Made by a program: the position numbers and the translations under genes. Positions 5,775 to 58,102 of a stretch of DNA of 64,000 nucleotides are shown piece by piece. The notes under the pieces were generated by a model that did not search any database, was not told the origin of the DNA, and saw only the letters and a program-made list of their open reading frames with translations. The stretch is from Diplonema papillatum (taxonomy: Eukaryota > Euglenozoa > Diplonemea > Diplonemida > Diplonemidae), in the NCBI GenBank assembly GCA_030068145.1, contig JAPJBO010000269.1, positions 1 to 64,000 of the forward strand, given 5' to 3'. Position 1 is the stretch's first letter. Every line of letters starts with the position of its first letter.

Positions 5775-5824
5775 TCCGTCACGGGGAGAAGGCATATGGT
5801 TCCACCGGGGGGGGGGGAGCATAC

Positions 5825-6378
5825 TCCTGGCGATGCTGACGGCGAGGGGCTGCGTGACTTCGAGGGACCGCTGGAGGAACTCTTGGCGCTTCCACAGGCT
5901 CTCGCTGCAGGTGACGAGGTTCGACAGCAGGAGCGTCTTGCGAGGATCGCTGTCGTGCTTGACGATCAGGAGGTTGAAGTAGTGGATCATGCCGGTCAGC
6001 TGCGGGAGCATGGTGACGTTGGCACCGACATTCATGCCCGAGCCCAGCGGGTCAAGCATGCTCAACTGCGCACCGGCATCCATGTCCCTCCTGGGGAGGA
6101 AGATCGGAGAAGGATCAGCCTGCGGCCTCGGGGGAGACAGCGACGGCGCGATGGTGTGCGCCTTGAAGTCGAAGGTCGCGTAGAACGAGAAAAAGAGCCG
6201 CAGCACGTCGCTCGCGTCCTCCGGCACCTCGGCGGGGGAGCGGTCGTCGATGACGGAGATGAGGAGGAGGAGCAGCAGGTACCCGTTCACCACGCCCGGG
6301 CGGTCGCCCATTTGCGCGGTGCGGAAGATGGACTTGATCGCGAACGCCGCCCGCTTCAGGGCGGGCGCTCTCGTGAAC
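5825..6378 (-). CDS. Gene 1 exon 3: PAP-associated domain
   Basis: The acceptor is ACAG/G at 6379 and the donor is A/GTATGC at 5824. The exon enters in phase 2 and leaves in phase 1. It encodes the central helices (LKRAAFAIKSIFRTAQ, NGYLLLLLLISVIDD) and the PAP/25A-associated signature LDPLGSGMNVGANV, near which family members carry the nucleotide-specificity loop. Translation beyond 5824 runs into repeat R8 and stops at 5718, so splicing there is more likely than read-through. The next exon was not found. Confidence 0.7.
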
Positions 6379-9300
6379 CTGTTTTGTGTTTCCGGCGATT
6401 ATCGCGCAGCCAGTTGCCTGTGACGGCGTTCTTTTTGATTGCTGTGAAATAGTCAAAAGGGTTGCTTAGGTTCGCTGCTGATCTGCTGCTTGGCTCTGCA
6501 TGTAGAGTGCAGTGATGACGGAGCTGGCGGTTGATAAAGTGGCCCTGGTAAGGTGTCGTGGGGATCGGGAGGTTTGGCACCGGCACCTCGGCAGGGGAGC
6601 GGTCGTCGATGACGGAGATGAGGAGGAGGAGCAGCAGGTACCCGTTCACCACGCCCGGACGGTCGCCCATTTGCGCGGTGCGGAAGATGGACTTGATCGC
6701 GAATGCCGCCCGTTTCAGGGCGGGCGCTCTCGTGAACCTGTTTTTTTTGTGTTTCCGACGATCCCGTGGGACGTACAGATTGGTGTCTTTCGACCTTTTG
6801 TTTGTTTGTGAGGTTCAGCTTGGTGCGTGTGGTCGGTGGGCGGGTGGGGGGTGGTTGGTTAGGAAGCTCTACTGTATCGGGCTAGACTTTAATTCATGCT
6901 TGAGCCAGGATGCCCACTCCGCAGCCTTTCCGCTGGTTTTGCGTTTTTTTTTTTTTTTTTTTTTTTTCGGTCGACGACAGGGACTTATATGGGTCGGAGA
7001 GATTTGGCGGGAAAGTTGGGAGTGCAGTGGGTGAAACTTGGGCAGTTGGAATGTTGCCTTTTGGCAGAAGTTTCCGATGCTTCTCGTCTCACGTTGGACA
7101 CTGCTGTGTCATGCTCGCCCGGCAAGGTGCCAACTTGGCAGTCAGAACGCGCTGCGGCAAGAAGATCGGGTAAGGGCGTTGGGGCAACAGGGTCTGTTTG
7201 TGTTCCAACTGAGAACGTTAGCCCCGAACTATTTTCCTGGCGCCAGCACCTGCTCCGGTCAATACAAGACACCACGGAGACAGAGGTCTACGTAATCTAG
7301 ACTTCTCTGCGTTCCCGCACATAGTTCCTGCATGCGTCGATTGGTATGCGAATCCTCTGGGAGCGAGTTGTTGTTTCATGAAGTCGGCTAGAGTGGCAGT
7401 CGTAGGTGCGATAACCCGAATATTGGCTGATGTTGCGCTTTCGACTTGAGCTGCTGACACTTCTCCTCCTTCCTGGGCGCGCTCGAGCATGCCCAGCAGG
7501 TTCTGCATTTGGAGCTAACCCCAGCGAGTGTGCCATCGAATCTCGCCCGCTTCTTCGGTGGCGTGGTGCCCTGACTGACCCTGGCCAACACCCAAAAAAA
7601 GAACTGCCTGTTCAGAAGATTATCATTTTTATTTTCCCGCCTGCCCAAGTTTTTTTTGCGGGTAAACAGTAAACTTGGGAGACGGCCCAAGTTTGCTATT
7701 CATATTATATAAGCCCCTGGTCGACGATATACGTCGTTCTGATGTCTGACGACTTTGTTTCTTTGCTTGCTTTGTTTTCCTTGTGGACCTTTTATTTCCC
7801 CCTTTCAAACAAAAAAACTTCTTCCTCTGGGAGAATCCTTTTTGTGCGGTCGTTTTTTTTTTTTTTTTGCCAATCGGTCGCCTTGTGGCTATGACTTTGT
7901 GGAGTTTTTTTTCTTTTTTTAGAGTTAAAAGTTCGCTTGAAATTCCGGGGCTTTAGGGTCTCCGTGTGACCGTTGATAAACGGTTTCTCTCTCAGAGCAA
8001 GACCAGGTACCAGGGAAAGCCTGCTACACGGGAGCCAAGCTTCACTTGTTCGGCGGACCTGCAGAGCCACGGGCCTACGGGTCTAGTGGCTACCAATTTC
8101 CAAAACTAAAGCATCAAGGCTTGGCGCACCTTGGGGCTTGGCACTCGCGCTGAACACAAGCTCGTCGAGACGGTCAGCCGCAGGGCAGAGCGGACGGGGT
8201 TGTGGCACTGTGCTGCCTCCGACTCAAGCTTTGCAAGCTGTGGTTGACCGTCACGTTCCTGGACCAGGAGTTATGTATTTTCTCTTTTCTTAGAGCAAGA
8301 AAGGGCTATATGGTTACGGGTTGTATATTTGGTGCACACGTTCGTTATGGGTTATGGCTAGCCATGTCCAGGACGGTTTGTGACCGTTTTCTTTTTTGTG
8401 TTACCGTCGATTCCGAAGGACGATCAGTTTCGTGTCGTTGTTTGTTTGGCAAGGAGTTTTGGTGACGCGCTTCAGTTAGAGAAATACTCGAGGGACTGCC
8501 TTGTGCTCATTTCGAAGAAGCCTAGAGGGGGAGAAAACAATACAACTACAAAGTGGTCTTTTTGAACGCTTACGCAACTAAACCCAGATTTACCTGTGCT
8601 TCGTGTGGGCTACAGCACATTTACCTCCTTTGATCTATCGCAACTGGCAGTCTCCTCAAGCATTTCCTACAAAGCAGGTGCTCATACAAAAAAAGAAAAT
8701 AAGAAATAAGATGTCAAAATTCAGTTTGCTTGCTCTCTCACCGGGTGCTCAATTCACTTCTCAGCCAGTTTTTTTGTGTTGCCGTCGATCCCGAAGGACG
8801 ATCAGTTTGTGTCTTGCGACCTTTGTTTGTTGGGCAAGGAGTTTTTTTTTTTTGATATTTTGCAACTTACCTACAAAAAGCAGGTGCTTATACAAAAAGA
8901 AATGCGTAGTTTCGTTTTGTTCTTTTACTTGTAGTTGTCGACAACTTCTTTTGTATTGAGGTGTCATTCAGATGGAAATCCAAAGCCGCCCACGTATAGG
9001 ATGAAAGGAGAAAATGTTTCGAAGAAAAGACTGCGTTCTCTTGTTTTTTCTTTTTTTTTCCTCACAAAATTGCTCGCAAACCTCGTGGTCAGCCTCGGCG
9101 CGACGACCCGCGGCTGCGGCAGCCCTCCTGTTTCGACGGTGTCCTTGAAGATGTGCACGACGTACTCAGGCTCGTCTTTTTCCTTCAGTCTCGCGTTGCC
9201 CGCGGCCTGCTGGATCCAACTCGACTTCCACAGCGCACCGGACTTCATCCGGACGGCGGGGAATCCGTAGACGTAGGACAGCGTCGATTCGACTTCGAAC

Positions 9301-12300
9301 TTCTGGAGGCTCCGCACGATGACTTCGAGGACGGTGTCACTCGGGACGGAAGGGTCACTGTTCTCGATCACGAGGTCGAGGGCTGAATCGAACGCTGCGA
9401 CGCAGTAGGCGGAGCCGCCGATGTGCTTGAGCATCGACTCCGTGCTCACGCTGCCTTGGATGAACTTTTGGAGCGAGAGGCGCACGGCGGTGCGGCCGTC
9501 GACCTCGCTCGGCAGCGCCTGCACGTACGCCGAAAACGCGATGATTTCGTCGTTCGCGGTGGTCGGCGCGTTGCAGGGCAGCCCGGAGTGCGTGAGCCAC
9601 GGCGTCCGGTTCGGCGACGCCGCCACCGACTTCTTGCGCCCCGACGCGCCGACGACGCCGGGCGGGTCCTTCGTCGGCACGCTCCCGGGCAGCACCAGCG
9701 GCGTCTTCGGGTCGCCCGTCACATTGCGATCGTCCGCGCTGTACTGGCTTAGCGGTGAGTCCGCTCGGTCGCCTGCAGATGGTAGTTACTAAGTTAGGGT
9801 ATCGGTGGTGATCAAAACGCATTTCTTTGCGTTTATTGTGGTTTAGAGGTTTTTAGAGCGTAAGTTCACGTTTTTGTTCAAGAAAGGTCGAGACGCAGCT
9901 GTTGGCAAAAGAGACTATCGGTGTCGCAAAACGCAAATTTTGTTGTTTTGTTAAGAAAGGTCTTGAGCATCGACTCCGTGCACACGCTGCCTTGGATGAA
10001 CTTTTGGAGCGAGAGGCGCACGGCGGTGGCAGCGCCTGCACGTACGCCGAAAACGCGATGATTTCGTCGTTCGCGGTGGTCGGCGCGTTGCAGGGCAGCC
10101 CGGAGTGCGTGAGCCACGGCGTCCGGTTCGGCGACGCCGCCACCGACTTCTTGCGCCCCGACGCGCCGACGACGCCGGGCGGGTCTTTCGTCGGCACGCT
10201 CCCGGGCAGCACCAGCGGCGTCTTCGGGTCGCCCGTCACATTGCGATCGTCCGCGCTGTACTGGCTTAGCGGTGAGTCCGCTCGGTCACCTGCAGATGGT
10301 AGTTACTGAGTTAGGGTAACCCCCGGTGGTGATCAAAACGCATTTCTTTTTGCGTTTATTGTGGTTTAGAGGTTTTTAGAGCGTGAGTTCACGGTTTTAG
10401 AGTTAAAGTTCGCTTGAAATTTCGGGGGTTTAGGGTCGCGCCGTGTGACCGTTGATAAATGTTTGTTCAAAAAGAAAGTCGAGAAGCAGCTGTTGGCAAA
10501 AGAGACTATCGGTGTTGAACAACACGCAACGTTTGTTCGAGAAAAGCTGAGACGCAGCTCTTGGCAAAAGAGACTATCGGTGTCGCAAAACGCAAATTTT
10601 GTTGTTTTGTTAAGAAAGGTCTTGAGCATCGGGCTACCGACCGGTTGATTTCAAAGGTCTGGATTTGCTCGCTTGTGGGGAGGTGGCGCAACTCACGTAC
10701 CAAGACCCGCTGGGCGGTGCGAATCCTTGGTTGCTGCCTCAATCTGTTGCAGTCAGGCCTCAATCACACGAATGCAACAAGGGGGGAAGTCCCAGCCTTC
10801 TTGTTAAGGATCAGCCACTTTGGCCGGATGGCCGGATAAACGAGACCCCTCCCCACCGTACAGCGCAGTTGCCTTGGAGGCTGGGTGGTCAAATTCTCTA
10901 AGGTGAAATGGTCAAAATTCCCTGCAAAAAGTGGGCCCAAACCGGGTGGATGGATGGATGGTTCTTGATTCCGCGCAAACGAGCAAAAGTTCATCCAAGG
11001 TAGCGTGTGCATGGAGTCGCCCAAGTGCTAAATGACTACAAGCTCAACGCCGAGATAACCCGTGACAGGTCGGCCGCCACCACCCTGTTAGGCCAACACG
11101 GTGAAATCCAAGAGCACGACTGATGATGCCTGGTATTGGATTAGTCTCGTGTACCGGGCGAAACTAAAGCGGCGGGTCTGTCACTAGGGCAACAACCAGG
11201 AAAACACTTGGTAGCACGCAGTAGCAGTACATACCACATACCATATACCTACTACGGTATGGATAGCACAGCACGTAGATGCATAGCACCACACAGCACG
11301 TAGATGCACAGCATACCACGGTGTATGAGTACATACGTATACTGCTACCACCACGTAGCAGCAGTACACCACCACGTAGCAGCAGCACGTAGTATGAGTA
11401 GAGGTATACGTAGTACCAGCGACACCTCCCGAAAGTGAGCCAAGGGCGAAGGACGTATCTGCGGCTGCTACGGCAGTTGCCCGGTGGTAACCCCACACGC
11501 AGAAAGCGGGGAAGGGGGACGTGTTTTCCCAACTACTTTGAAGCCCATTGCCGACCGTAGCATCCGACGAAGGTGTATGCATGGAGGGTGCTACGGTAGC
11601 CTTGGGCGCGTGCCGCGTGCAGGGCGGGTGCTTTGTGATCCGCCGCGAAGTTCTCTCCTGGTGCAGTCCGGAGAGACCGGCGTCGAGTTTCGGCTCACAG
11701 CCGGTTCCCTCGGCCGGCAACTCTAAGGGAGAGACACAATCCATCTTAAAAAGGACCACACACTAATGCACAAAACTTACGATAGGGACTGCCGGGTTCG
11801 TACTTGAATGCAACCTCGGTCAGCTGACCGAGATTCACTATCATCTGCCGTTTTCCCAGGGTGACCAAATACCGTGAGATACTGAGACACTCCGCAAAAA
11901 CGCAAATTTCGGGCATATTCGACCCCGAAACCCCACAAACCTCGAAAACAATCTTTGACCGGAAAAGTGTCGTGGGCAGGGTTCGAACCCGGGCCTACCG
12001 GCCTGAAGGCCGACGCCCGCTCACTCTGCCACTCCTATGCATTTTTTTTTTTTTTTTTTTGAGTAAGCAACCAGGGCATTAGCTTGGTCTCCAGCCCATT
12101 ATCCAAATTTGGACCGCTAACGGCTTTTTGCGTTTTCACTGTTTTTCAGCAGTTTCTGCACTTAGGGGGCTCACCTGCCAGTGTTGCACGGGTCTCTGCC
12201 ACCTCTCCGGCCTCAGCCTCTATGTCACGGTAGCAACAGCCAGGATTTGTCGACTGGAACTCCCGGTACCACAACATCTTGTCTCTGAGTACAGTAGAAG

Positions 12301-17175: not shown

Positions 17176-18297
17176 TTTTTGTTTTAGCCACATGCAATGT
17201 GTGAGGAAACTGAACCGCCCAAGTAGGACCTTCTGATCATGATCATTTGCCAAATTTGCCCCCTGAAACCACGTCCAGGATTTGGGCTCAGAGTAGTGCG
17301 GTCAACGAAAACTCTAGTTTCCCTTTCTACTTTCTCCTACTCTCGCGGTGTACGGTTTTCCGACGATCCCGTGGGACGTACAGATTGGTGTCTTTCGACC
17401 TTTTGTTTGTTTTGTGAGGTTGCAGCTTGGTGCATGCGGTCGGTCGGCTTTTTTTTGAAAGAAAAAGAGTGAAGTTTCTTCCCACGTTTTTTCCCCTTGA
17501 GCGGGAAGCACGAGTTTCTTCTTTCTTGACGTTTTCTGGCGGCCGAGCTGGCGGGTCGGGGTATGTCCCCTCTCCCGCGAAGCGGCATCGGCAGTCCTCG
17601 ACGACGGATTGCCACTCAAGCCCCCCAGGAGGGCTATCACGGCAAGTAAACCTATGTTTTATCCTTTCAACTCACCAGCATTTGGTAGGTTTCGTGAAGT
17701 TTAGGCACGCAGCGAACGAATTATTAGTGTCAACAACGCATTGTTTGCACAAAGATAGTACAAAAAGGAAACGCATGGGGTGATCCTCCGTCCGAAACTT
17801 TTGTTTGTTTTGTGAGGTTGCGGTTTGGTGCACGCGCGCGGCTCTTTTTAAAAAATTAGTATGGCACTTTCTTTTGTTTGTGCGCACTAGCGGAACTCAC
17901 CTGCTTTGGTAAGTTTTCATGTAGTACGCTGCCAACTACTTATTGTTAGTACCAGCAATGCATTGTTAACACAAAGAACACACTGCGAGAAAATACATAT
18001 AAACGCGGACAACAGACCGGTACGGGCTACAAGGCAACCCCTGCTCAACTTGTAGAACGTGGGGGGCCCAAGACTACACTCCACGAAGGAATGTACTTGG
18101 TGTCGGTCACAAACAGTCCTGGACATGGCTAGCCATAACCCATAACGACGCGTGCACTAAATATACAACCCGTAACCACATAGCCCTTTCTTGCTCTAAG
18201 AGAACCCATTCATGAACGGTCACACGGAGACCCTAAAACCCCGGAAGTTCAAGCGAACTTTAACTCTAAAAAAGAGTGAAGTTGTTTCCGACGTTTT
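17176..18297. other. Repeat mosaic, no gene
   Basis: R2 at 17358-17425. At 17485-17560 there is a partial copy of the 414-bp duplicated unit (GCACGAGTTTCTTCTTTC). At 18110-18275, reverse copies of the 8268-8400 repeat and of R1 are present. No exon was seen. Confidence 0.5.
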
Positions 18298-20399: not shown

Positions 20400-21553
20400 T
20401 CAGACTAAGGTGCCCAGGCACCCTGTTCCGGAACAGTCGTCGTTGGGGTATGTGTCGGGCCACACGTAGGCGGGGGTCGTGACGGTGTAGTTCCCGTCGC
20501 CGGTGAACGACGGGTACGTGGCCTCGATGAAGAAGCCGGTCCAGCCGCCCTCCGGGCGCACCGGCACACCCGCCTTGTACGTGCCGACGCATTCTTCGGA
20601 CACCTGCCGGCCACTCCACGCGACCATCGCCACGCAGTTGGCGCCGGCGTACGCGGGCAGCGCCGGGATCGACACCTCCGGCGCCTCGCACGCCCCGGTG
20701 CCGCTGCCGGAGACGCGGAGCCAGCGGAAGTCCCGGTTGATGAGGGAGCTCGTGTTGCCGCGTTGGACGTGCACCGCCAGCGGCTGCGGATGCACGTGAG
20801 CAGTGAGTATCCCAGTGGACGGTTCGAAATGCGACTCGATCCGGACGGGACGCCGCTTCGTGAACACGCGGTACACAGTTTCGCCGACGGCCTTGACGAT
20901 CCCCGGGACGACGTCGAGGAGCAGGTGGCTCTCGTTCGGGAACACCGTCAGCACCTTCCGGCCGGGCACTCTGCCCCACCAAGCCGCGGCGCTGCCGACG
21001 AGCATGAACTCGTCGGCGGTCGCGAGCACTACGTGCGTCACCACGGACCTCAACCGGGCCAAGCGGTGGATAGGATCCGTCGCCTCCATCTGCTGCTTCG
21101 TGGTCGCTGCGTCCAGGCGGACGGTGGCACCCCACGCGTGATAGATCCCGAAAGCCCAGGACCACCCGCCGAGGCTGCGGTAGTGCTGGTGCAGCGATTC
21201 GACCAAGTTCGGCACAACCGGGACCAACGGCGCGATGCCGACCACCTGCGGGCACCACGGCGCGCGGCAGCGCACGGTTCCGGCCAGCCAGGTCGTCCAG
21301 CCGCGCTTCGACACGCCGGAGACGAACCAGCTGTCGATGCGGTCGCGGCGGGTGCGGCCGAAGCGGCCGGCCGCGCGCATCGCTTGGAACACCGCCTTCG
21401 TCATCGGGAACTGGGCGAGGCCGCGCGGCTCGGTCGGGTCGGCCGCGAACCGGGCCCACGTGTACGCCATGAAAGAGTCCTCGTCGAGCGACGCTGCCGA
21501 CGGTTCAGTGCCGCAGGTGATGCGACAATTCGGGATCTGGAAGAGCAGGGCTC
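20400..21553 (-). CDS. Gene 2 exon 2 (main domain and C-terminus)
   Basis: The acceptor CACACAG/G lies at 21554. The exon ends in TGA at 20402-20400 (…GCLGTLV). It holds the hydrolase-like core and a C-terminal beta-rich part with paired Cys (SEECVGTYK, DDCSGTGC). A possible donor inside the last codons could not be excluded, because repeat R3 starts at the stop. Confidence 0.85.
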
Positions 21554-24500
21554 CTGTGTGGGTGAGTGCAAGTGGTATGATGCATGAGTAGAATGATGTA
21601 GTAGATATGCGATGTGGTAGTGCATCGTACGTACGCATGTAGAAATATGGAGTAGTGTATGATGCATGTGGTAGATATGCATGTAGTTGTATGAAGTCGT
21701 GTATTAGCATGTGGTATGATGCATGTGGTAGCTATGCATGTGGTAGTATGAAGTCGTGTATTAGCATGTGGTATGATGCTTGTGGTAGATATGCATGTAG
21801 TAGTATGAAGTCGTTTATTAGCATGTGGTATGATGCATGTGGTAGATATGCATGTAGTAGTATGAAGTCGTGTATTAGCATGTGGTATGATTCATGTGGT
21901 AGCTATGGTGGTGTGATGCATGTGGTAGATATGCATGTAGTAGTATGAAGTAGTGTATTCGCATGTGGCATGATTCATGTGGTAGCTATGCATGCAGTAG
22001 TGTATTCGCATGTGGTGTGATGCATGTGGTAGATATGCATGTAGTGGTATGAAGTAGCGTATTTGCATGTGGTATGATGCCATGAACGAATCCTCGTCGA
22101 TGCGGTCGCGGCCATCGTGGTCGAGCTGTCGATGCGGTCGCGGCGGGTGCGGCCGAAGCGGTTGGCCGCGCGCATCGCTTGGAACACCGCCTTCGTCATC
22201 GGAAACTGGGCGAGGCCGCGCGGCTCGGTCGGGTCGGCGGCGAACCGGGCCCACGTGTACGCCATGAAAGAGTCCTCGTCGAGCGACGTTGCCGACGGTT
22301 CAGTTCCGCAGGTGATGCGACAGTTCGGGATCTGGAAGAGCAGGGCTCCTGTGTTGGTGAGTGGCATGACGCATGGTGGATACGCATGTAGCAGACATGC
22401 ACATGGTATGATGCATGAGCAGGATGATGTAGTAGATATGCGATGTGCTAGTATGGTAGATACGCATGTAGAAATATGAAGTAGTGTATGATGCATGTGG
22501 TAGATATGCATGTAGTGGTATGAAGTAGTGTATTTGCATGTGGTATTATGCCATGAACGAATCCTCGTCGATGCGGTCGCGGCCATCTGCTGCTTCGTGG
22601 TCGCGCTGTCGATGCGGTCGCGGCGGGTGCGGCCGAACCGGTCGGCCGCGCGCATCGCTTGGAACACCGCCTTCGTCATCTGGAATTGGGCGAGGCCGCG
22701 CGGCTCGGTCCGGTCGGCCGCGAACCGGGCCCACGTGTACGCCATGAAAAGAGTACTCGTCGAGCGACGTTGCAGACGGTTCACTGCCGCAGGTGATGAG
22801 GCAGTTCGGGATCTGGAAGAGCAGGGCTCCTGAGTGGGTAAGAGGTATTAGTAGTGCGCAAGTGTATGCTGCATGGTAGACACGCATGTAGTAGTATGAT
22901 TCGGTAGATATGTATGTGGTATGTGTTGCCTGGTCAATACGCGGTAGCTTCCTGGTTGCGTGTACTGACTCCTGGTGACGATCGTGTCAACCGCCGACTT
23001 TTTTACGTTCAATAGTTGCGTCGCGCGATGGTGAAGACGAGGCAGCAGACAAGCGAGGGGTGAAGCTACCATGTCTCGAGACTGGAGGTCCGATGAACGT
23101 GCAATGTGAATAGCCTCTATTCGAGCCAACCCGGCTTTTCTTCAGTGAAAAAGTGCATTGTTTTTGGACCAGATAATAGCGCGGAGCAAGCTTTTTATTC
23201 CCCCGCCAAAATGCATATGGGTGGCAGAGTGAGCGGGTGTCGGCCTTCAGGCCGGTCGGCCCGGGTTCGAACCCCGCCCATCACACTTTTCCGGTCGAGG
23301 ATTGTTTTTTTTTCGAGGTTTGTTGCGTTTCGGGGTCTAATGTGCCCGAAATTTGTCTATCTCGCGGTATTTGGGTCAGGCGGGGGGGTCCGGGGGGGGT
23401 CTTTCCTCCAGGTACTGGCATCGAGCTGGCCATCACAGGCCAAACCTGCTACACGCCGAACTCAGCATCACCAGAACCCGAACTTCGCTCCACCAGAACT
23501 TAGCTTCACCAGAACATAGCTTCGCCCGAACTCAGCTTGACCAGAACTTAGCTTCGCCCGAAAGAACTGAGCAGCGCGCTGAGCAGTGAGCTTCGTGCGA
23601 ACTCTGCTTCGTCCGAACTCAGCTGCGCCCGAACTTTGCTTCACCAGAACTCAGCTTCGCCCGAACTCTACTGTTTCCCGAACTTTAACTGCTGCCTCCA
23701 GTCTCGCCCCGCGCCGGCCTTTAGCCGAGCGCAGGTACTTTTCTGACGGGGGGAGCCCTTTTTGTTTTGAGCGCTTATTTTTTTAGAGTTAAAGTTCGCT
23801 TGAAATACCGGGGTTTTAGGGTCTCCGTGTGACCGTTCATGAATGGGTTCTCTTAGAGCAAGAAAGGGCTATGTGGTTACGGGTTGTATATTTTTATAAG
23901 TGTTGGTATTTGTCGTATGCAAGACAACGCTGTCGTATGCAAGACAACGCAACGTATACTCTCCTAGATCTGCGATCTGACAGCTGTACTTTTTTGTTGA
24001 ACGCTTACGCCCGCCACTGGACCCACCCAGATTGATCTGTGTTTCGTGTGGGCTACAGCACATTTACCTCCTTTGATCTTTCGCAACTGGCAGCCTCCTC
24101 AAGGATTTCCTACAAAGCACGTGCTCATAAAATACTCGAGGGGCTGCGTTGTGCTTACTTCGAAGGAGGCTAGAGGGGGAGAAACAATACAACTACAAAG
24201 TGGGTCTTTTTTGTTGAACGCTTACGCCCGCCACTGAACCCAGATTCGCCTATGTTTCGTGTGGGCTACAGCACATTTACCTCCTTTGATCTTTTGCAGG
24301 TGGCAGCCTCCTCAAGTATTTCCTACAAAGCAGGTGCTTATACAACAAAAAAAATGAAATCGTGTTCCACTCTGCTTTTCTCCTACTCTCGCGGTTTACA
24401 GTTTTCCTATGTTTCGGGGATGAGGTGCACACCGGTGCAGCCGACAGAGGCTGTGATGCCGTCGAGAATCTCCGCGTCTCTGGCGGACGCGATGATGGCA

Positions 24501-24829: not shown

Positions 24830-24836
24830 CTTTTTT

Positions 24837-25084
24837 TCTGCGTCTTTTTGTGTTACCGTCGATCCCGAAGGACGGTCAATTTGGTGTCTTGCGACCTTTG
24901 TTTGCTTTTTCCCTCTTCTGTTCTCGGCTGTCTCGATGCCTTATCCTTTTCGGGTTCTTACCGCAACGCTGCTTTCTTCTTGTCCCTTTTCATCGTTGTT
25001 TGGTGGTGGATTAGAAGGTCGGTTTCTAAGAGTCTCCAGTTGACCGTGGATCTTTCAAGTGCGGCTGTCTCATGCTTGCTCCCT
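24837..25084. other. Upstream region of gene 2
   Basis: R2 copy at 24840-24905 touching exon 1, then T-rich unique sequence. No promoter motif could be assigned. Confidence 0.4.
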
Positions 25085-26699: not shown

Positions 26700-28232
<1,533 letters not shown>

Positions 28233-31008
28233 TCACGGCATCATGACAGCCGTCGGCGGGAACCTCAGCTGCGACAACAGGAAGTTGTGATACGCGTTCG
28301 GGCTGCTTGCCCGCTTGGCGGTGCCCTGCTGCTGCTGCTGCTGCTGCTGCTGCGGCTTTGCACGCTGCGGGCTGGCCATGCTTTTGTCGGCGGAGCGCTG
28401 CCCGCCAAGGGCCAGCCCTTCGGGCGCCAGCAGCTGCGTCTGCGCGAGGAAAAAGCGGACGTCAATCAGCTGCGCCGCCACCGACGCGTGCAGCTGCAGC
28501 GAGGCGGCGGCCGCCTGGGCGGCCGCTTCGAACTTCGTCGCCTCCTGCGGCGGGTGCGCGAGGAGGGGCAGCCGGGCCACGTCCAGCGCCACCGACAGCA
28601 TGCTCCGCGGCGCGTCGTGGCCGTGCGACTTGAACACGCGGATCAGCGCCTTCGTGAAGTCGACGCTTTTCAGGTACCCGGGCGGCTGCTGCTTGGTGGG
28701 CTGGGAGGACGGCTGGCCCATCGTGCGCACCAGGGCGAACGTCACCTCCCGCGGCGCCGCGGCCTTGCCGAGAAGCTGCGTCAAAGCCGATCGGACTAGC
28801 TGCGCGTCTTTGCTCCGCTCGGCGGCCGTAGTCCGCAGGAACTTCGACCCGACCGACCTTGACGCCCGCCTGCGGACAAGCCCTGCGGGGGGGTGGGCGG
28901 CGCCGGGCCGTGACGCGGCGCCGAGGGGGGGTCCCCCGAGAGGTGCCCTCTCGCGTTGCGAAGCAAAGCTCGGCTCGCCGGGTTGCTTGCTGGGATCAAC
29001 GCGTCTTGCGATGGTGCTGTAGCTGCTGCTGCTGCTGCTGCTGCGGCTGTCGTCGTCTTCGCAGCTCAACCCGTTTCGTGCCGCCGCCACGTCCACCTCC
29101 CCCCACCCGCCGCTGTGCGGGCCCGGGAACCAGCTGTCACTCTCGGAGCGCGTTCCGTAGGCGCTGGCGGCGTCGTCTGCCTGCCGCCGCCCGCCCACCC
29201 CCGGCGCGCCCTGTTTCCGCGCCGCCGACGACCGGCCGCCGCGGCCATCCCCGGCAGGCTGCCCCAAGCTTTGTCCCCCCGGGAACCAGCTGTCACGCTC
29301 GCAACGCGTTTCCTGGGTGTTGGCGGCGTCGTCTGCCTGCCGCCGCCCGCCCACCCCCGGCGCGCCTTTTTTCCGCGCCGCCGGAGACCGGCCGCCGCGG
29401 CTATCCCCGGCGGGCTGCCCCAACGAGGCCAAGCTTTGGCTCCCCGGGAGCCAGCTGTCACTCTCGGAACGTGTTCCGTTCGTGGTGGCGGCGTCGTCTG
29501 CCTGCCGCCGCCCGCCCACCCCCGGCGCGCCCTGCTTCCGCGCCGCCGGAGACCGGCCGCCGCGGCCATCCCCGGCAGGCTGCCCCAACGAAGCCAGGCT
29601 TTCGGCGGCGCCGTTCCACCCGCCGCGCAGGGGGTCCGTGCCCCCCGGGAGCCAGCTGTCACTCCCGCAACGCGTTCCGTGGGCGTACGACGCGTCGCCT
29701 GCCAGCCGCCGGCCGCCCGCGCCCGGCGCTCCTTTTTTCCGCGTCCCCGGGGAACGGTTGCGGCGGCCGAGCGAAGCCAGGCTTTCGACGTCTCCGTTCC
29801 ACCCGCCGCTTCTCGGCTTCGACGACGCCCTCTCCTCCTCTTCTTCTTCTACTTCTTCTTCTTCTTCCAGCGGGGCCCGCAGCGTTCCACGGATGGACGA
29901 AGGCAGGGCGTTGAAGTCCCAGCCGTCGTCTTCTTCCGCTTCGCGGTGCGAGCGGCCGGTGGTTTTTGTGGGGAAGCGCGGGGTGTCGTGTTCTTCTTCG
30001 TCTTCTTCTTCTTCTTCGCCGCCCGCACCTTCTTCTGCTTGATTGTGCGTCGTGGGGTTGTAACTGCAGGCTGAGCTCGCCCTGTCGAGCTTAACACGGG
30101 GTACTTCACGTGTTGGGGTTGTCGGGTTGCGGTTGGCCGCGGCCTGGGTGGCGCGCTGCACCCGGGGATCCCCTTTGGACTGCTTCAAGTCGACGGTGAC
30201 GCAAGGTTCACCCTCCAGCCGGGCGCCCCGCCTGCCCCTGGCAGCTGCGCCGCCTTGGCTGGTTCTCCTGCCGCCTGTGTCGGGGCGCGGCTTGTGGTGG
30301 GGGCGGGGCTGGGGTGGCCCCGCGTGCCCCCGGCGCGCCTTCGGGGTCTTTTCGCCCGCGTGTTCCGGCTGCGGACCGGACGCGGTTTTCGCGCCCTTCG
30401 CGGCGCGGGGCCGCGTGCGCCCCAGTTTCCCGGTTACGCCGGAGGGTTCCCCACCGGCGGCGGCGGCCGCCGCCGCCTCCCAGGGGAGTTCCTCGCCGTC
30501 GGAGGCGTGGTGGGTCATGAGCGCGGAGACCAGGTCGATGTAGTCGAGGGTGGCGTCGCCTCCGGCGCCGCCGCCGGCCAGCGACCGGATGACCTCCCAA
30601 ACGGTCGCGCTTGGCAGCTCTGGGCAGCTGAGGTAGAGGACCTCAGCGAGCTTTGCCGCCGTGATGTACCCCCTCCGGTCCTTGTCCTGCTGGTTGCACA
30701 GCTGCAAGATGACCCCTGCCGACCGGACGAGCACGGCGGTCGTCCCAACCCGCTTCCCCTGGCCGCCACTCCGCCCCGCCCCCTCCGCGACCTTCGTCCC
30801 CACGCCGCGCGCCCCCCTCAACGCCGCCGCGGCCTCCCGGCCGAGAAGCCCGAGGAACCGGCGGAACTGTCCGAGGTTAAAGAACCCCGTGCTTGCGTCG
30901 TCTACTTCGTCGAAAAGCGACTCGTACTCCGCTTCTGAGAGGTCGCGGGCCCCGCGGCTCCGCAGCGCGGCCAGCAGCTGGTCGTACGTAAGAACCCCGT
31001 CGCCGTCA
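28233..31008 (-). CDS. Gene 3 exon d: EF-hands, disordered region, polyQ C-terminus
   Basis: Acceptor CTCACAG/T at 31009 (phase 2); TGA at 28235-28233. The first 60 residues complete one EF-hand (SDGDGVLTYDQLLAAL) and hold a second, weaker one (DEVDDASTGFFNLGQF). Two more degenerate hands follow (NQQDKDRRGYITAAKLAEV; DATLDYIDLVSALM). Then come about 500 disordered residues with four repeats around GAPGVGGRRQADDA and acidic runs. A helical part follows (SALTQLLGKAAAPREVTFAL, FTKALIRVFKSHGHDAPR), then nine Gln and ANY-type tail SSPNAYHNFLLSQLRFPP. Confidence 0.85.
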
Positions 31009-47429: not shown

Positions 47430-48440
47430 GTGGGAGCCCCGCCGTGCCTCACGGGGTACGAGATGAGGCCAATCTTCCGTGGTGGTACGGAGACGATGGA
47501 AGTGCTCGAGACGCAGCTGACGACGGCTCGGCACGAATTCAACGGCGAGGCGTGGGGGATGGATCTTTTCCCGACGTACGGAGGTGGAAGGGCGGAGCGT
47601 GCGGCGAGATGGGCGGTGTTCAACGACGCTACGGAGAAGAAGAAAGGCAGGAAGTCGGCAGTCGTCGGAGGGGATCCGTGGTACGTGCCGGAAGGGGTTC
47701 CCCAACACGAAAAGTGGGGTGAGCGGGTGTGCCACGAGCACCAAAAGGTGAAGTGCGACGTCTGCAAGCGCCGGGGCAAGTCGGTGGCGTGGTGCTGTAA
47801 GGCCCACCACAAGGAAGACGACGGCCTTGCGGTGAAGTTCTGCGCGCAGCACCGCCTGACGCAATGCGCGACGTGCAAGACGATCGCAGAGTGCTGCCGC
47901 AACGGACACCACCGGTGCCTTGATCATGGCATGCCGACGTGTGCGCACTGCAGGCTCGCGGACTTGCGGAGTCGAAGGCCCAAACTGTGCTGTCGGAAGG
48001 GGCACCACCGGGCGACCGTGGCGAGTGGAGAAGAAGCAGCATCGAAGAAGAGGAAGGCGGAGCTGGAGGGCGCCGCGCCAGCGCCGAGACAGGCGAAGCG
48101 TGAGAACGTGGTGTTCATTCTGCAGGAAGCAGCAGAAGGCAAGCGAGAGCCCGCAACATCAACACCGACGTCAGCAGCGAAGGTCGGGAAGACGGCGCCA
48201 ACGCCAGCGAAGAAGCGGCGATCAGACTCCGCGGCGGAGCCGGTACCGAAAAGACGCAAAAGACGCGTCGATGCGCCACGACCATCGCCCAGGCGCCGAG
48301 AAAAAGCAGAAGTCGACGCGCAACCGATGAACCTCGACGAGCAATCGAAGAAGAAGCGAAGCACCAAACGCGCGCCTGAGCGCGACGATCAAGACGAGCT
48401 AAAGAGGCGAAAGCATGACACTTCACGTGCGAAGAGATAA
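47430..48440 (+). CDS. Cys/His-rich protein with basic tail, probably transposon-encoded
   Basis: 336 codons with no intron, on the plus strand opposite to all host exons. Residues about 100-200 hold a dense Cys/His array (CHEHQKVKCDVCKRRG, CCKAHH, CAQHRLTQCATC, CCRNGHH, CAHCR, CCRKGHH), suggesting several zinc-binding knuckles. Residues 205-336 are very basic with nuclear-localisation-like runs (KKRRSD, KRRKRRVD). The last ~40 codons plus 3' flank recur in reverse at 50790-50990, and the ORF is followed by TTACACTCGA-type repeats, so I take it as part of a mobile element. No transposase motif is visible. Confidence 0.6.
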   Translation: MGAPPCLTGYEMRPIFRGGTETMEVLETQLTTARHEFNGEAWGMDLFPTYGGGRAERAARWAVFNDATEKKKGRKSAVVGGDPWYVPEGVPQHEKWGERVCHEHQKVKCDVCKRRGKSVAWCCKAHHKEDDGLAVKFCAQHRLTQCATCKTIAECCRNGHHRCLDHGMPTCAHCRLADLRSRRPKLCCRKGHHRATVASGEEAASKKRKAELEGAAPAPRQAKRENVVFILQEAAEGKREPATSTPTSAAKVGKTAPTPAKKRRSDSAAEPVPKRRKRRVDAPRPSPRRREKAEVDAQPMNLDEQSKKKRSTKRAPERDDQDELKRRKHDTSRAKR

Positions 48441-48600
48441 CCGCGCAGTCGGAGATGCAGATTATCGCCACAGATTCTTTGCATTCTAATCCAAAACGAT
48501 TACACTCTATTACACTCGATTACACTATATTACACTCGATTACGCTCGATCAGGGGGTGGGTGAATTGGCTCATATAAACCCCCGGATCTCTAAGAGAAG
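48441..48600 (+). repeat. ATTACACTCG subterminal repeats and element end
   Basis: Five units of the type TTACACTCGA at 48495-48550, then CAGGGGGTGGGTGAATTGGC. That last part recurs in the same orientation at 51052-51075, and in imperfect reverse at 50766-50780. Confidence 0.7.
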
Positions 48601-50756: not shown

Positions 50757-51090
50757 ACAGTACCCCCCCAATTCACCAAAAGCTGATCGATTGTAATCGA
50801 TCGTAATCGTTTTGGATTAGAATGCAAAGAATCTGTGGCGATAATCTGCATCGCCGACTGCGCGGTTATCTCTTCGCACGTGAAGTGTCATGCTTTCGCC
50901 TCTTTAGCTCGTCTTGATCGTCGCGCTCAGGCGCGCGTTTGGTGCTTCGCTTCTTCTTCGATTGCTCGTCGAGGTTCATCGGTTGCATCGTAATCGAGTG
51001 TAATCGAGTGTAATCGATGCGTAATCGAGTGTAATCGAGCTCAAGACGCTTTCAGGGGGGGTAGGTGAATTGGCTCATTATAGTCTGTGC
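50757..51090 (-). mobile_element. Short non-autonomous relative of the Cys/His-ORF element
   Basis: 50790-50990 is the reverse complement of 48320-48520 (the ORF's last codons and 3' flank). It is bordered by TGTAATCGAG repeats on both sides (50789-50805 and 50985-51045) and by AATTCACC-type ends in opposite orientation (50769 and 51069). This looks like a deletion derivative with inverted ends; the ends are imperfect and I could not fix a target duplication. Confidence 0.6.
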
Positions 51091-51785: not shown

Positions 51786-51899
51786 AGAAGCGAAAACGGG
51801 GGAGAAGCGACCAATGATCTTCGTGCCACGGTTCCGTTATCGCCGTGGGTGGTGGCCCCGAGGGGGCACAACAAAAATAATGGGAATGCGGGCGTGGGG

Positions 51900-52105
51900 G
51901 ATTGCAAGAACGTGGTTGGGATGGGTATGTGCTCAACACCGCACTGGTCCCGTCTGCGCCGTGTTTCGGTCCTTTAAGCCACGGACACATAAGGCGGGCC
52001 ATCATCAGCGCGGAACCTGAGTGTCTGCAGACAGGACAGCGGTGTGAGTCTGGTTTGTCAGGCGGATGTTCGTAGCTCAACAGCCAGGACCACCCGTGCT
52101 ACCAG
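51900..52105 (+). repeat. Interspersed repeat R8, copy 3
   Basis: Third copy of the ~212-bp element, preceded by an R1 fragment and followed by a G run at 52117-52139. Confidence 0.8.
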
Positions 52106-54049: not shown

Positions 54050-55130
54050 CGCACGGCGCCTGGAACGAGAGGTCCCGGGAACGTTGCACATCCCTAGAAA
54101 TCCGCACCTTTGGAACGTCTTTTGTCCCATCCATTATGCGGCGGGTGCCCTCGACCTTTTAGGCCGAGGCAAATACCCCAACGCTCTGCAAGTTTTCCCT
54201 CGCTCCCTCTTTCTTTCTCTTGCTCATTATTGTGATTCCCAAACATCTGACATGAAGCGCATTGTTCTTCATTGTTTCCCAACGGCTTTATCACGCCGGT
54301 GGCCCTGAGAGTATACCCCAGCTCCCCCGTCCCCCCCCTCAGGTGACAGCGTCGCTTTCTCCGCGGGCTCTCGTACGCCGCTGGTTCTTCGCTTTTGTAA
54401 CTGCCGGCACCGGCACCCTCTCCGCGCCCGAATTCCCACCAACCCACTCGCAGTGCAGTTAACGTAGCGGCTGTGCAGCGGCGTAAAGGGGAAACCTGTG
54501 GGACAAAAAACACGTTCCAAAAAGGCGCGGGGTTTTTAGTGCTAACAATCTTGCGGGTTGCCCTTCAATGTATTGCGCAGGCTAAAAAGACGCAGGCAGC
54601 GTGTTTTTGGTGGTTTGATCAGAATTCCTTACCTGAATATACTCAGGGCAAATACAAGTGGGAAAAAACGATCACCCGGCACGCACAAACAAAACGAAGC
54701 GCCTGTCTTTTTTAGGGATGTGCAGTGTTCCCGGGACTTCTCGTTCCAGGCGCGCCATGCGTCTTCTCGCGGACGTCAACGCCCGGGTCCCCCAGCCGGT
54801 CGGTTTATCGCGCTTCGCAGTTTCAGAGGCTTTTGGATCACCATTGGGCTTGACGCGCCGGCCGGTCCCGGATTCTTCGCTTGCCAGAAAGGAATCTTTC
54901 ATCGGCAGCTACGAGCAGGGATACAAAAGGGAACCAGCGGCTGCCGCCCCTCTCCCGTGACACCTTTTACGAGTAGTTGGAGTATGTGAGATAACTACTG
55001 TGTGGAAAGAGTAGTAGCCGCCGGTTCGTTTTCTGTTGTAGTAGAGAACCCGGGACCAGCCGTCGCGTCGAGTCCAAAACATGATCCAAAAAGCCCCTGA
55101 AACTGCGAAGCGCGGCTATTCAATCACGGT
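54050..55130. repeat. Nested inverted repeats next to gene 4
   Basis: Reverse-complement pairs: 54055-54100 with 54712-54757 (CGGGAC-T/C-TCTCGTTCCAGGCGC), 54091-54145 with 54478-54530, and 54795-54860 with 55080-55120 (GATCCAAAAGCCTCTGAAAC). In addition 54330-54460 is a reverse copy of 55165-55275, the 3' part of gene 4's last exon. The block looks like a chain of inverted duplications. Confidence 0.65.
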
Positions 55131-55838
55131 AGGTCGCATGGCGGGCGGAGTGATCTTCGGAGGAAGGTGGGGCTGGTGGGAGTTCGGGCGCGGGGCGGAA
55201 GCCGCCGGCAGCGACAGCAGCGAAGAAGAACCGGCGCCGTACGAGAGCCCGGAGAAGGCGACGCTGACGTTGATCGGCGCGTTGCCGGAGTTGCTGGCCA
55301 GGCTCGACCGCTCCAACAGCGGCACACCGATGTCAAGCAGCCCCCCGGGGAACGCCCTGTGAATGGCAGCCAGAGGGGGTGAGATGAAGCGGACATCCGG
55401 CGATCTCGGGTTCCATTTGACCTTCTTCTTGGCCTCCAGCGCAGCTGCCGCTGCCGCCGCTGCGGAGGGGGCGAGGCGCGGGGAAGTGAAAGCGAAGGAC
55501 TTCCCGTCTGCTCTGCGCTTCGACTGGTTCTTCAGGACGCCGGCGGGCGCGTGGCGGGGCGATCCGGGCGCCTTGCGCTTCCTCGCGCTGGGCTCGTTGA
55601 GGGTGACGCTTTCCCTCTGCAGCGCGGCGCTTCCGCTCGGGCCGCAGGCGGCCCCGCACGCGACGGCGATGGCCGCGGCCACACACACGCCTGCCGCCGT
55701 CCTGCCGGCGCGCGGCGACGATGGGTCGCGCCCAGCCCTCATACCGGCAGGCGTCGAAGGTATCCGGATTTTGTACTCTTGGATCGACTCGTCTTCGGAG
55801 CGGGACGCACTTCGCTGTGACGGGTGTGTTGACTGGCA
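55116..55838 (-). CDS. Gene 4 last exon (unrecognised protein)
   Basis: Acceptor CTCCAG/T at 55839 or, six bases on, GCCAG/T at 55833; both keep the frame. 240 codons to a stop at 55116. It reads STHPSQRSASRSEDESIQEY, a hydrophobic stretch GVCVAAAIAVACGAACG that could be membrane-embedded or just Ala-rich, a basic stretch SARKRKAPGSPRHAP, then ALEAKKKVKWNPRSPDVRFI and a Ser/Pro-rich tail. No known family. Joins in phase 0 to the exon at 58021-58102. Confidence 0.55.
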   Translation of the reverse strand, partial: CQSTHPSQRSASRSEDESIQEYKIRIPSTPAGMRAGRDPSSPRAGRTAAGVCVAAAIAVACGAACGPSGSAALQRESVTLNEPSARKRKAPGSPRHAPAGVLKNQSKRRADGKSFAFTSPRLAPSAAAAAAAALEAKKKVKWNPRSPDVRFISPPLAAIHRAFPGGLLDIGVPLLERSSLASNSGNAPINVSVAFSGLSYGAGSSSLLSLPAASAPRPNSHQPHLPPKITPPAMRPTVIE

Positions 55839-56148
55839 CTGGAGGGAAGTACAATGTGTAAGTTGTCGAGTGAAGGTTACGTGTAGTATGGTGTGTGTTG
55901 TGTGGTGTGGGTTGTGTGTATTGTGTATTGTGGGTGTGAGTGGTGTGTATTGTGTGTGTGAGGGTGGTTGTGAGTGTTGTGTATTGTGGGTGTGAGTGTT
56001 GTGAGATGCGGGTGTGAGTGTTGTGTATTGTTGAGTGTGAGTGCTGTGTATGGTGGTTGTGAGTGTTGTGTATTGTGAGTGAGTGTTGTGAATGATGGGT
56101 ATGAGTGCTGTGTATTGTCGGTGTGAATGTGGTGGAATCCTATCTCGT

Positions 56149-56443
56149 CGGGGGCGTGGCGGGGCGACCCGGGCGCCTTGCGCTTCCTCGCGCTGGGCTC
56201 GTTGAGGGTGACGCTTTCCCTCTGCAGCGCGGCGCTTCCGCTCGGGCCGCAGGCGGCCCCGCACGCGACGGCGATGGCCGCGGCCACACACACGCCCGCC
56301 GCCGTCCCGCCGGCGCGCGGCGACGATGGGTCGCGCCCAGCCCTCATACCGGCAGGCGTCGAAGGTATCCGGATTTTGTACTCTTGGATCGACTCGTCTT
56401 CGGAGCGGGACGCACTTCGCTGTGACGGGTGTGTTGACTGGCA
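56149..56443 (-). pseudogene. Exon echo 1 of gene 4 last exon
   Basis: Near-identical copy of the first 295 bp of the exon, including both CCAG acceptor options, ending at SPRHAP. It then joins GACGAGATAGGATTCCACC. The last part matches the upstream exon's donor region (GACGAACTTCTC/GTAGGATTCC) with the GT changed to AT, so the break used sequence from that donor. Confidence 0.85.
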
Positions 56444-57107
56444 CTGGAGGGAAGTACAATGTGTAAGTTGTCGAGTGAAGGTTACGTGCAGTATGGTGTG
56501 TGTTGTGTGGTGTGGGTTGTGTGTATTGTGTATTGTGGGTGTGAGTGGTGTGTATTGTGTGTGTGAGGGTGGTTGTGAGTGTTGTGTATTGTGGGTGTGA
56601 GTGTTGTGAGATGCGGGTGTGAGTGTTGTGAGATGCGGGTGTGAGTGTTGTGTATTGTTGAGTGTGAGTGCTGTGTATGGTGGTTGTGAGTGTTGTGTAT
56701 TGTGGGTGTGAGTGTTGTGAGATGCGGGTGTGAGTGTTGTGTATTGTTGAGTGTGAGTGCTGTGTATGGTGGTTGTGAGTGTTGTGTATTGTGGGTGTGA
56801 GTGTTGTGAGATGCGGGTGTGAGTGTTGTGTATTGTTGAGTGTGAGTGCTGTGTATGGTGGTTGTGAGTGTTGTGTATTGTGAGTGAGTGTTGTGAGATG
56901 CGGGTGTGAGTGTTGTGAGATGCGGGTGTGAGTGTTGTGTATTGTTGAGTGTGAGTGCTGTGTATGGTGGTTGTGAGTGTTGTGTATTGTTGAGTGTGAG
57001 TGCTGTGTATGGTGGTTGTGAGTGTTGTGTATTGTGAGTGAGTGTTGTGAATGATGGGTATGAGTGCTGTGTATTGTCGGTGTGAATGTGGTGGAATCCT
57101 ATCTCGT

Positions 57108-57402
57108 CGGGGGCGTGGCGGGGCGATCCGGGCGCCTTGCGCTTCCTCGCGCTGGGCTCGTTGAGGGTGACGCTTTCCCTCTGCAGCGCGGCGCTTCCGC
57201 TCGGGCCGCAGGCGGCCCCGCACGCGACGGCGATGGCCGCGGCCACACACACGCCCGCCGCCGTCCCGCCGGCGCGCGGCGACGATGGGTCGCGCCCAGC
57301 CCTCATACCGGCAGGCGTCGAAGGTATCCGGATTTTGTACTCTTGGATCGACTCGTCTTCGGAGCGGGACGCACTTCGCTGTGACGGGTGTGTTGACTGG
57401 CA
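57108..57402 (-). pseudogene. Exon echo 2 of gene 4 last exon
   Basis: Same structure, length and break point as echo 1, with only scattered differences. Acceptors are kept. Confidence 0.85.
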
Positions 57403-57710
57403 CTGGAGGGAAGTACAATGTGTAAGTTGTCGAGTGAAGGTTACGTGTAGTATGGTGTGTGTTGTGTGGTGTGGGTTGTGTGTATTGTGTATTGTGGGTG
57501 TGAGTGGTGTGTATTGTGTGTGTGAGGGTGGTTGTGAGTGTTGTGTATTGTGGGTGTGAGTGTTGTGAGATGCGGGTGTGAGTGTTGTGTATTGTTGAGT
57601 GTGAGTGCTGTGTATGGTGGTTGTGAGTGTTGTGTATTGTGAGTGAGTGTTGTGAATGATGGGTATGAGTGCTGTGTATTGTCGGTGTGAATGTGGTGGA
57701 ATCCTATCTC

Positions 57711-57930
57711 GTCGGGGGCGTGGCGGGGCGACCCGGGCGCCTTGCGCTTCCTCGCGCTGGGCTCGTTGAGGGTGACGCTTTCCCTCTGCAGCGCGGCGCT
57801 TCCGCTCGGGCCGCAGGCGGCCCCGCACGCGACGGCGATGGCCGCGGCCACACACACGCCTGCCGCCGTCGCGCCGGCGCGCGGCGACGATGGGTCGCGC
57901 CCAGCCCTCATACCGGCAGGCGTCGAAGGT
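57711..57930 (-). pseudogene. Exon echo 3 of gene 4 last exon, lacking the acceptor
   Basis: Shorter copy starting within the exon (ACCTTCGACGCCTGCCGG) directly against minisatellite, with the same 3' break as echoes 1 and 2. Confidence 0.8.
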
Positions 57931-58020
57931 ATTGTGAGTGTTGTGTATTGCGAGTGTGAGTGCTGTGTACGGTGGTTGTGAGTGTTGTGCATTGTGGGTG
58001 TGAATGTGGTGGAATCCTAC

Positions 58021-58102
58021 GAGAAGTTCGTCCGCTCGCGTGACGGCAACGGGGAGGCTGGTGTCGTGCTCATTTTCGAAGGGGGAGGGCAAACGGTGGG
58101 GC
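58021..58102 (-). CDS. Gene 4 internal exon
   Basis: 82-bp exon with acceptor ACGCAG/G (58103) and donor CTTCTC/GTAGGA (58020), phase 2 in and 0 out. Reads PSPFENEHDTSLPVAVTRAD. Supported by splice sites, by phase agreement with the last exon and by reuse of its donor region in the exon echoes. Confidence 0.55.

What the first reader, a model, noticed from the sequence alone, without database searches (positions are those of the whole stretch)
5825..58102. Exon echoes: truncated exon copies beside intact exons in four genes
Gene 1 exons 2 and 3, gene 2 exon 2 (two echoes), gene 3 exon d (five or six modules) and gene 4's last exon (three echoes) each have neighbouring partial copies. In genes 1, 2 and 4 the copies lie upstream in gene orientation, keep the 3' splice site in all but one case, and stop inside the exon. 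In gene 3 they lie downstream. The simplest model is tandem duplication with one breakpoint in the intron (usually a minisatellite) and one in the exon, tolerated because the intact exon survives. Several such cases in 64 kb is a high density. It could be a route for exon shuffling, decoy acceptors or regulated mis-splicing.
Basis: partly seen in the sequence, partly recalled or inferred. Interest (0 to 1): 0.75.

Follow-up and report, generated by a model that had tools for sequence, protein, structure and literature searches.

The report
Exon-edge duplications common throughout this genome
Partial copies of exons sit beside the intact exons in this marine flagellate's genes; the copies are real, but they look like ordinary leftovers of a genome that often duplicates short stretches of DNA, and the pattern has already been described in this species.

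Summary
The genome is almost certainly Diplonema (Paradiplonema) papillatum. Its genome paper already reports genes bounded by repeated pieces of their own 5' or 3' ends (PMC10161547, section 7).

I scored 24 further stretches (221 kb) of the same genome. They hold 25 local same-strand duplication events; 10 cross an exon edge, in 6 of 24 stretches. Exon-crossing events are at chance in the window (5 seen, 4.9 expected) and modestly above it in the other stretches (10 seen, 5.75 expected, P = 0.026). There is no polarity (8 five-prime edges, 7 three-prime). Events wholly inside exons are rarer than chance. Arrays inside called exons have periods divisible by three in 19 of 19 cases, against 40 of 94 outside.

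Best reading: short duplications arise everywhere and selection removes those that break a frame. One of five junctions shows 11 bp of microhomology, a second suggests 10. One copy flanks a truncated, A-tailed dispersed element and may be a long target-site duplication. No evidence of function was found; no RNA was available.

The parts
6221..6378 (-). Gene 1 exon 3, first 158 bp of the intact exon (exon continues to about 5820)
   Evidence: self-match; acceptor CAG at 6379-6381 read; coding call 5817-6383
6580..6737 (-). Echo of gene 1 exon 3 (158 bp), preceded by CAG at 6738-6740
6382..6576 (-). 5'-truncated, A-tailed dispersed element R lying between echo and intact exon 3
   Evidence: about 40 other places at 84-97% identity in a capped list; boundaries
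6743..6845 (-). Dispersed repeat A whose A-rich tail abuts the echo's CAG
9066..9772 (-). Gene 1 exon 2, intact (boundaries read from sequence)
9962..10289 (-). Echo of gene 1 exon 2, with acceptor at 10290-10292 and a 19-bp internal deletion
9962..9972 (-). 11-bp microhomology CGATGCTCAAG at the tandem-duplication junction (intron-side parent at 10621-10631)
20400..21553 (-). Gene 2 exon 2, intact (PhoPQ_related family)
   Evidence: PF10142 E 4.8e-50
22124..22348 (-). Gene 2 exon 2 echo 1 (acceptor kept)
22605..22829 (-). Gene 2 exon 2 echo 2 (acceptor kept; scrambled 3' end)
28233..28853 (-). 3' end of gene 3 coding sequence (intact; stop at 28233-28235)
26781..28199 (-). Four downstream modules repeating the gene 3 C-terminal codons, stop and start of 3'UTR; two of them carry long CAG runs (roughly 130 and 460 bp)
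55116..55838 (-). Gene 4 last exon, intact
   Evidence: coding call 55233-55682
56146..56443 (-). Gene 4 echo 1 (acceptor kept)
57105..57402 (-). Gene 4 echo 2 (acceptor kept)
57710..57932 (-). Gene 4 echo 3 (starts inside the exon, no acceptor)

Best explanation
Short local duplications with units of roughly 0.2-1 kb, often head to tail, arise throughout this genome with little regard to exons. Probably they come from microhomology-mediated template switching or replication slippage (inferred). Those that cross an exon edge leave one intact exon and are tolerated at any length. Those inside an exon survive mainly if they keep the frame (arrays there are multiples of three, shown with the caveat below). 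The leftover copies lie in introns or UTRs, where they pick up deletions, repeat expansions and element insertions. They are neutral debris without a dedicated function (inferred). This is the 'repeat-bounded gene' pattern already reported for Diplonema papillatum.
For: 13 of 24 sampled stretches and the window hold local same-strand duplications of at least 60 bp and 80% identity within 3 kb, after masking arrays with units under 60 bp. Of 44 events over window and loci, 15 cross an exon edge, 1 is wholly inside an exon, 28 touch no called exon; circular-shift null means (window plus loci) are 10.65, 5.11 and 28.24, so events touching coding DNA (16) match the null (15.8). Arrays inside called exons have periods divisible by three in 19 of 19 cases, outside in 40 of 94, Fisher P = 9e-7; counting all 9 arrays within 50 bp of a called exon as inside still gives 24 of 28 against 35 of 85. 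Junction microhomology of 11 bp at gene 1 exon 2. Head-to-tail arrangement in 6 of 15 exon-edge events: gene 1 exon 2, gene 3, L033, L037, gene 4, L038 three-prime. Frame-shifting indels in 13 of 29 compared pairs. CAG runs of roughly 130 and 460 bp in two of gene 3's four downstream modules against about ten codons in the intact exon. Published precedent in this species.
Against: Exon-edge events exceed the null in the loci alone (10 against 5.75, P = 0.026). In six settings the pooled figures are 15/10.8, 14/7.5, 11/7.0, 14/8.2, 15/12.3 and 13/6.4, P from 0.002 to 0.215. A pair with one conserved member should stay recognisable longer, which may explain this, but I did not test it. The exon caller needs an open frame, so a frame-breaking repeat inside an exon would end the called segment; this biases both the multiple-of-three result and the scarcity of inside events (limits the first, not the second). 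In 9 of 15 exon-edge events the aligned copies are separated by 26 bp or more with no head-to-tail pair, so later insertion, deletion or another process is needed. Only one of five window junctions shows clear microhomology; gene 3's 10-bp string GCAAAGCCGC is shared by exon and junction but no unduplicated UTR parent survives; gene 2 is compound, gene 4 has about 11 bp of unexplained sequence, gene 1 exon 3 has an element in between. The few differences in gene 1 exon 3 (4 of 4) and gene 4 (5 of 5 over three related pairs) are all synonymous, which free decay of the echo does not predict.
Confidence: 0.7

Rival explanations
1. Echoes are long target-site duplications left by retroelement insertion. 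In gene 1 exon 3 a 5'-truncated A-tailed element R inserted in the A-rich tail of a resident element just before the exon and duplicated about 160 bp of target.
For: In gene 1 exon 3 the dispersed element fills the gap between the copies: R ends at 6382 next to the CAG of the intact exon, and its other end lies 4 bp from the end of the repeated stretch.
Against: 0 of 11 other R copies examined show a long direct repeat around the element (5' ends beyond the 1.5-kb flanks would be missed). I saw no such element filling the gap in the other four window groups. L038's three-prime echo is part of a tandem array with units of 644 and 652 bp.
Confidence: 0.1
2. Echoes are functional decoy acceptors or regulated alternative exons that tune splicing.
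For: 6 of 7 upstream copies in the window keep the acceptor; differences in the gene 1 exon 3 and gene 4 echoes are all synonymous; exon-edge events are above chance in some settings; gene 4's echo frame stays open into the minisatellite as far as 55877.
Against: No polarity across 15 events; 13 of 29 pairs carry frame-shifting indels; in genes 1 and 2 the frames entered at the echo acceptor stop about 36 to 75 codons past the echo, at 9853, 6356 and (echo 1) 21975; the one array with published RNA coverage is absent from mature mRNA.
Confidence: 0.07
3. Pieces of exon and intron are scattered by ectopic recombination or conversion between dispersed copies, and the echoes are local results of that.
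For: Locus L003 on another contig carries a 94% copy of the gene 1 exon 2 start with its intron end, and further partial copies. Nine of 15 exon-edge events have a gap between copies.
Against: A genome search with 6200-6850 listed no second copy of gene 1 exon 3, only element R and repeat A (capped, 40 of 2447 candidates scored). Six of 15 events are head to tail.
Confidence: 0.07
4. Assembly artefact: falsely repeated sequence, or two haplotypes laid end to end.
For: Repeats are hard to assemble; nothing specific was seen here.
Against: Copies differ by 1-20% and have distinct flanks. The genome paper reports a haploid genome with under 600 variable sites in its repeat-free part and PacBio support for one such array.
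Confidence: 0.03

Closest known systems
Repeat-bounded gene structures of Diplonema papillatum (PMC10161547; section 7 read in full)
   Same: Same genome by the evidence here; [quoted passage not shown] copies in the paper's example 71-96% identical.
   Different: Genes 1, 2 and 4 here repeat the 5' edge of an internal or last exon with its acceptor, a case that section does not spell out. I saw no rate against chance and no junction analysis in what I read (sections 5 and 7 in full, passages of others); supplementary files were not readable here.
Intron gain by tandem genomic duplication (PMC4974935, PMC2891723; search listings and abstract starts only)
   Same: Tandem duplication that copies splice sites while the gene keeps its product.
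   Different: There (recalled) a duplication creates a new intron inside a coding exon; here existing exon edges are copied into existing introns or UTRs, and no new intron is shown.
Target-site duplication of non-LTR retroelements (recalled)
   Same: Direct repeats flank a 5'-truncated A-tailed element in gene 1 exon 3.
   Different: About 160 bp is far longer than the usual length (recalled), and 11 other copies of R show no long repeat.

Membership tests
Repeat-bounded genes of D. papillatum | Genome is D. papillatum | tested here: met
   Recalled diplonemid spliced-leader sequence: 616 matches with up to 3 mismatches, control 0; 5.8S rRNA copies 7,628-7,630 bp apart on four contigs against a ~7.6-kb rDNA unit in the paper (passage); 271 Mb against 280 Mb. 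Species level is inferred.
Repeat-bounded genes of D. papillatum | Terminal part of gene or first exon, with coding sequence, repeated next to the gene | tested here: met
   Gene 3 C-terminal end with stop and following sequence repeated downstream; in L038 the probable start of a coding sequence and sequence before it repeated upstream
Repeat-bounded genes of D. papillatum | Long reads support the copies | not testable with these tools
   No reads held
Repeat-bounded genes of D. papillatum | Copies absent from mature mRNA | not testable with these tools
   No RNA held; published for one gene
Retroelement target-site duplication (gene 1 exon 3) | Direct repeats abut both ends of an inserted element | tested here: met
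   177-bp alignment of the 3' flank to sequence ending 4 bp from R's 5' end
Retroelement target-site duplication (gene 1 exon 3) | Other copies of the element make similar duplications | tested here: not met
   0 of 11 copies, limited to 1.5-kb flanks
Intron gain by tandem genomic duplication | Duplication within an exon creates a new intron | tested here: inconclusive
   Copies include existing intron ends; no intron-lacking relative available

The most novel reading that the evidence does not exclude
This genome makes exon-edge duplications faster than other DNA, giving thousands of genes a spare acceptor or donor, and a fraction of these are spliced in and feed intron sliding, new isoforms or intron gain; a diplonemid would then be a live model for how splice-site duplication reshapes genes.
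Probability: 0.12. Interest if true: 0.6.

Novelty: new member of a known kind. Interest (0 to 1): 0.3.

Why it matters
In practice it warns, as the genome paper does, that automated gene models here can gain false exons and introns. It also makes diplonemids a useful place to test whether duplicated splice sites ever become used.

Tried and rejected
Whole-set explanation by long target-site duplication: rejected after 0 of 11 other R copies showed one, and after one recent echo (L038 three-prime) proved to be part of a tandem array with units of 644 and 652 bp. In L038 five-prime, a 155-bp dispersed fragment begins within 10 bp of the echo's end but stops 133 bp before the second copy, so this is neither a clean target-site duplication nor a clean tandem copy.

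Enrichment of retroelement tails at acceptors: only 9 tails found in 25 sources, too few to test.

Gene 1 as a terminal uridylyl or poly(A) polymerase: only a sub-threshold PAP_assoc match (E 0.071) and no convincing solved-structure relative (best E 0.31, an unrelated enzyme); left open.

Codon-position test for function: 52, 39 and 91 differences at positions 1, 2 and 3; 86 synonymous, 96 not, over 29 non-independent pairs, 3 of them between gene 3 modules rather than echo and exon. Compatible with one constrained and one free copy, but it does not decide.

The window has more local duplications overall than the loci (19 in 64 kb against 25 in 221 kb, P = 2e-4); the loci are short and gene-centred, so this is not a clean comparison. 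The scan counted same-strand copies only.

Rows dropped or kept: called segments that were themselves echo copies of a better-scoring segment, or mostly simple repeat, were dropped before the counts. One gene 3 module (26988-27227) stayed in, so the window's 6 of 16 exons with an echo, and 14 of 63 overall, count it. Loci L027 and L030 overlap by 1,300 bp; no event lies in the overlap. The exon caller missed gene 1's putative first exon and gene 4's first exon in the window, and the PF00271 hit itself in 2 of its 20 training loci, L025 and L040.

Changed on checking: confidence lowered from 0.75 to 0.7, and the ectopic-recombination rival raised from 0.05 to 0.07, because gene 3's microhomology is only suggestive, 9 of 15 events are not head to tail, and the exon caller is biased against frame-breaking repeats.

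Full report
What is there. In gene orientation (the four genes lie on the minus strand) genes 1, 2 and 4 have partial copies upstream of the intact exon, and gene 3 has four copies of its coding end downstream. I read the acceptors: 6 of 7 upstream copies keep AG. Gene 2 is a PhoPQ_related family protein (PF10142, E 4.8e-50). Gene 3 has EF-hand matches below the family cut-offs. Gene 1 has only a sub-threshold PAP_assoc match, and gene 4's two exons have no match over a cut-off.

Which genome. The window is part of a 271-Mb assembly of 2,910 contigs. A diplonemid spliced-leader sequence, recalled, has 616 matches at up to three mismatches and none for the reversed control. 5.8S rRNA copies lie 7,628-7,630 bp apart on four contigs. 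The Diplonema papillatum genome paper gives a ~7.6-kb rDNA unit (passage), a 280-Mb assembly with N50 190 kb, and haploidy with under 600 variable sites in the repeat-free part (section 5). I take it as that species; this is an inference.

Already in print. [quoted passage not shown] In many, part of the gene's 5' region with coding sequence is repeated in tandem; [quoted passage not shown] Supplementary files could not be read. My searches for other accounts (listings and abstract starts) turned up intron gain by tandem duplication in other organisms. A paper on the introns of six other diplonemids (PMC12621601, section 5 read) reports CA-rich intron motifs in several, an A-rich tract in one, and CAG at the intron end in four Diplonemidae, which fits the acceptors seen here.

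Is the window special? I fetched 24 stretches of the same genome around helicase-domain hits (PF00271): 19 of 10 kb, one of 9,354 bp and 4 of 5.5 kb, 221,354 bp in all with a 1,300-bp overlap, from 129 listed places. Coding segments were called with a codon model trained on the first 20 hits. It finds gene 1 exons 2 and 3, both gene 2 exons, gene 3 and most of gene 4's last exon, but misses the putative first exons of genes 1 and 4, and 2 of its own 20 training hits. After masking arrays with units under 60 bp, same-strand duplications of at least 60 bp and 80% identity within 3 kb gave 25 events in the 24 stretches and 19 in the window. Ten of 25 and five of 19 have one copy in an exon and another outside it. 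The ten lie in 6 of 24 stretches and affect 8 of 47 exons. At that rate 2.9 are expected in 64 kb; five were seen, P = 0.17.

More than chance? Shifting exon positions at random within each stretch gives 4.9 edge events for the window (5 seen) and 5.75 for the loci (10 seen, P = 0.026). Events wholly inside an exon are 1 in the window (1.62 expected) and 0 in the loci (3.49 expected, P = 0.016). Over six settings of length, identity, distance and coding threshold the pooled edge excess ranges from 1.2- to 2.0-fold with P from 0.215 to 0.002, and inside events are below the null in all six. A copy pair in which the exon member is conserved should stay recognisable longer than a pair free to drift on both sides. 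That may explain the excess, but I did not test it.

Selection. Tandem arrays inside called coding segments have periods divisible by three in 19 of 19 cases, outside in 40 of 94 (P = 9e-7). The caller needs an open frame, so a frame-breaking array would end a segment; counting all nine arrays within 50 bp of a segment as inside still leaves 24 of 28 against 35 of 85. The same bias touches the scarcity of inside duplications and is not removed there. In gene 3 the CAG run is about ten codons in the intact exon but roughly 130 and 460 bp in two of the four downstream modules. Thirteen of 29 compared pairs carry frame-shifting indels. These fit duplications arising anywhere with only harmless ones staying. 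One result does not sit easily with free decay: in gene 1 exon 3 all 4 differences, and in gene 4 all 5 over three related pairs, are synonymous, while gene 2's echoes have 4 and 8 non-synonymous ones. The numbers are small.

Junctions. Gene 1 exon 2: intron and exon parents share CGATGCTCAAG (11 bp) at the junction, a tandem duplication later altered by a 19-bp deletion and a dispersed 65-bp insertion. Gene 3: exon and junction share GCAAAGCCGC (10 bp), but no unduplicated UTR parent survives, so this is only suggestive. Gene 2: both echoes end in nearly the same scrambled string of exon pieces, pointing to several jumps or deletions before the echo itself was copied. Gene 4: head-to-tail units with about 11 bp of unexplained sequence at the junction. 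Gene 1 exon 3: between echo and intact exon lies R, a truncated member of a dispersed family listed at about 40 other places, with an A-rich tail against the exon's CAG; the shared exon stretch is 158 bp. This could be a long target-site duplication, but 0 of 11 other R copies show one. Overall 6 of 15 exon-edge events are head to tail and 9 have a gap of 26 bp or more between the aligned copies.

Would the echoes matter to the RNA? Entered at the echo acceptor in the exon's frame, the open frames end at 9853 (gene 1 exon 2), 6356 (gene 1 exon 3) and 21975 (gene 2 echo 1), about 36 to 75 codons past the echo; in gene 4 the frame stays open through minisatellite to 55877. Use without a new donor would therefore change or truncate the protein. 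Whether they are used cannot be told from DNA.

Verdict. Real, common in the part of this genome that I sampled, and already described there in general form. What is added here is a first rate with a null, the lack of polarity, the in-frame tendency inside exons, and junction detail for five cases.

Noticed in passing
window 27075-27818: Long CAG/CTG runs (roughly 130 and 460 bp, read; one search reports them as one array that spans a module) in gene 3's downstream modules, against about ten CAG codons in the intact exon: a natural contrast between a constrained and an unconstrained copy of the same repeat.
   Followed up: partly
window 6743-6845, 8392-8460, 8770-8845, 24842-24904; L012: Two dispersed repeats end in GG(A/C/T)AACACAAAA tails; in gene 1 exon 3, its echo and L012 the tail runs into a CAG before apparent coding sequence, and at 24847 it lies just before gene 2's first exon. 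Element tails may supply A-rich 3' splice sites here. Too few cases to test.
   Followed up: partly
whole assembly: 616 matches to the spliced leader at up to three mismatches, against 110 SL RNA gene copies in the genome paper; some may be leaders carried by reinserted cDNAs.
   Followed up: no
window 34547-36700: Open frame of 717 aa with a reverse transcriptase match (PF00078), probably a retroelement.
   Followed up: no
L003 (C25:500713-503855): A 94% copy of gene 1's exon 2 start with its intron end on another contig, plus further partial copies; the rest of the gene is not matched in the stretch held.
   Followed up: partly
window 48320-48520 and 50786-50986: 201-bp inverted repeat at 97.5% identity about 2.3 kb apart.
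   Followed up: no
window 18289-19115: 414-bp tandem duplication at 99% identity outside any called exon, a recent example of the same process.
   Followed up: partly
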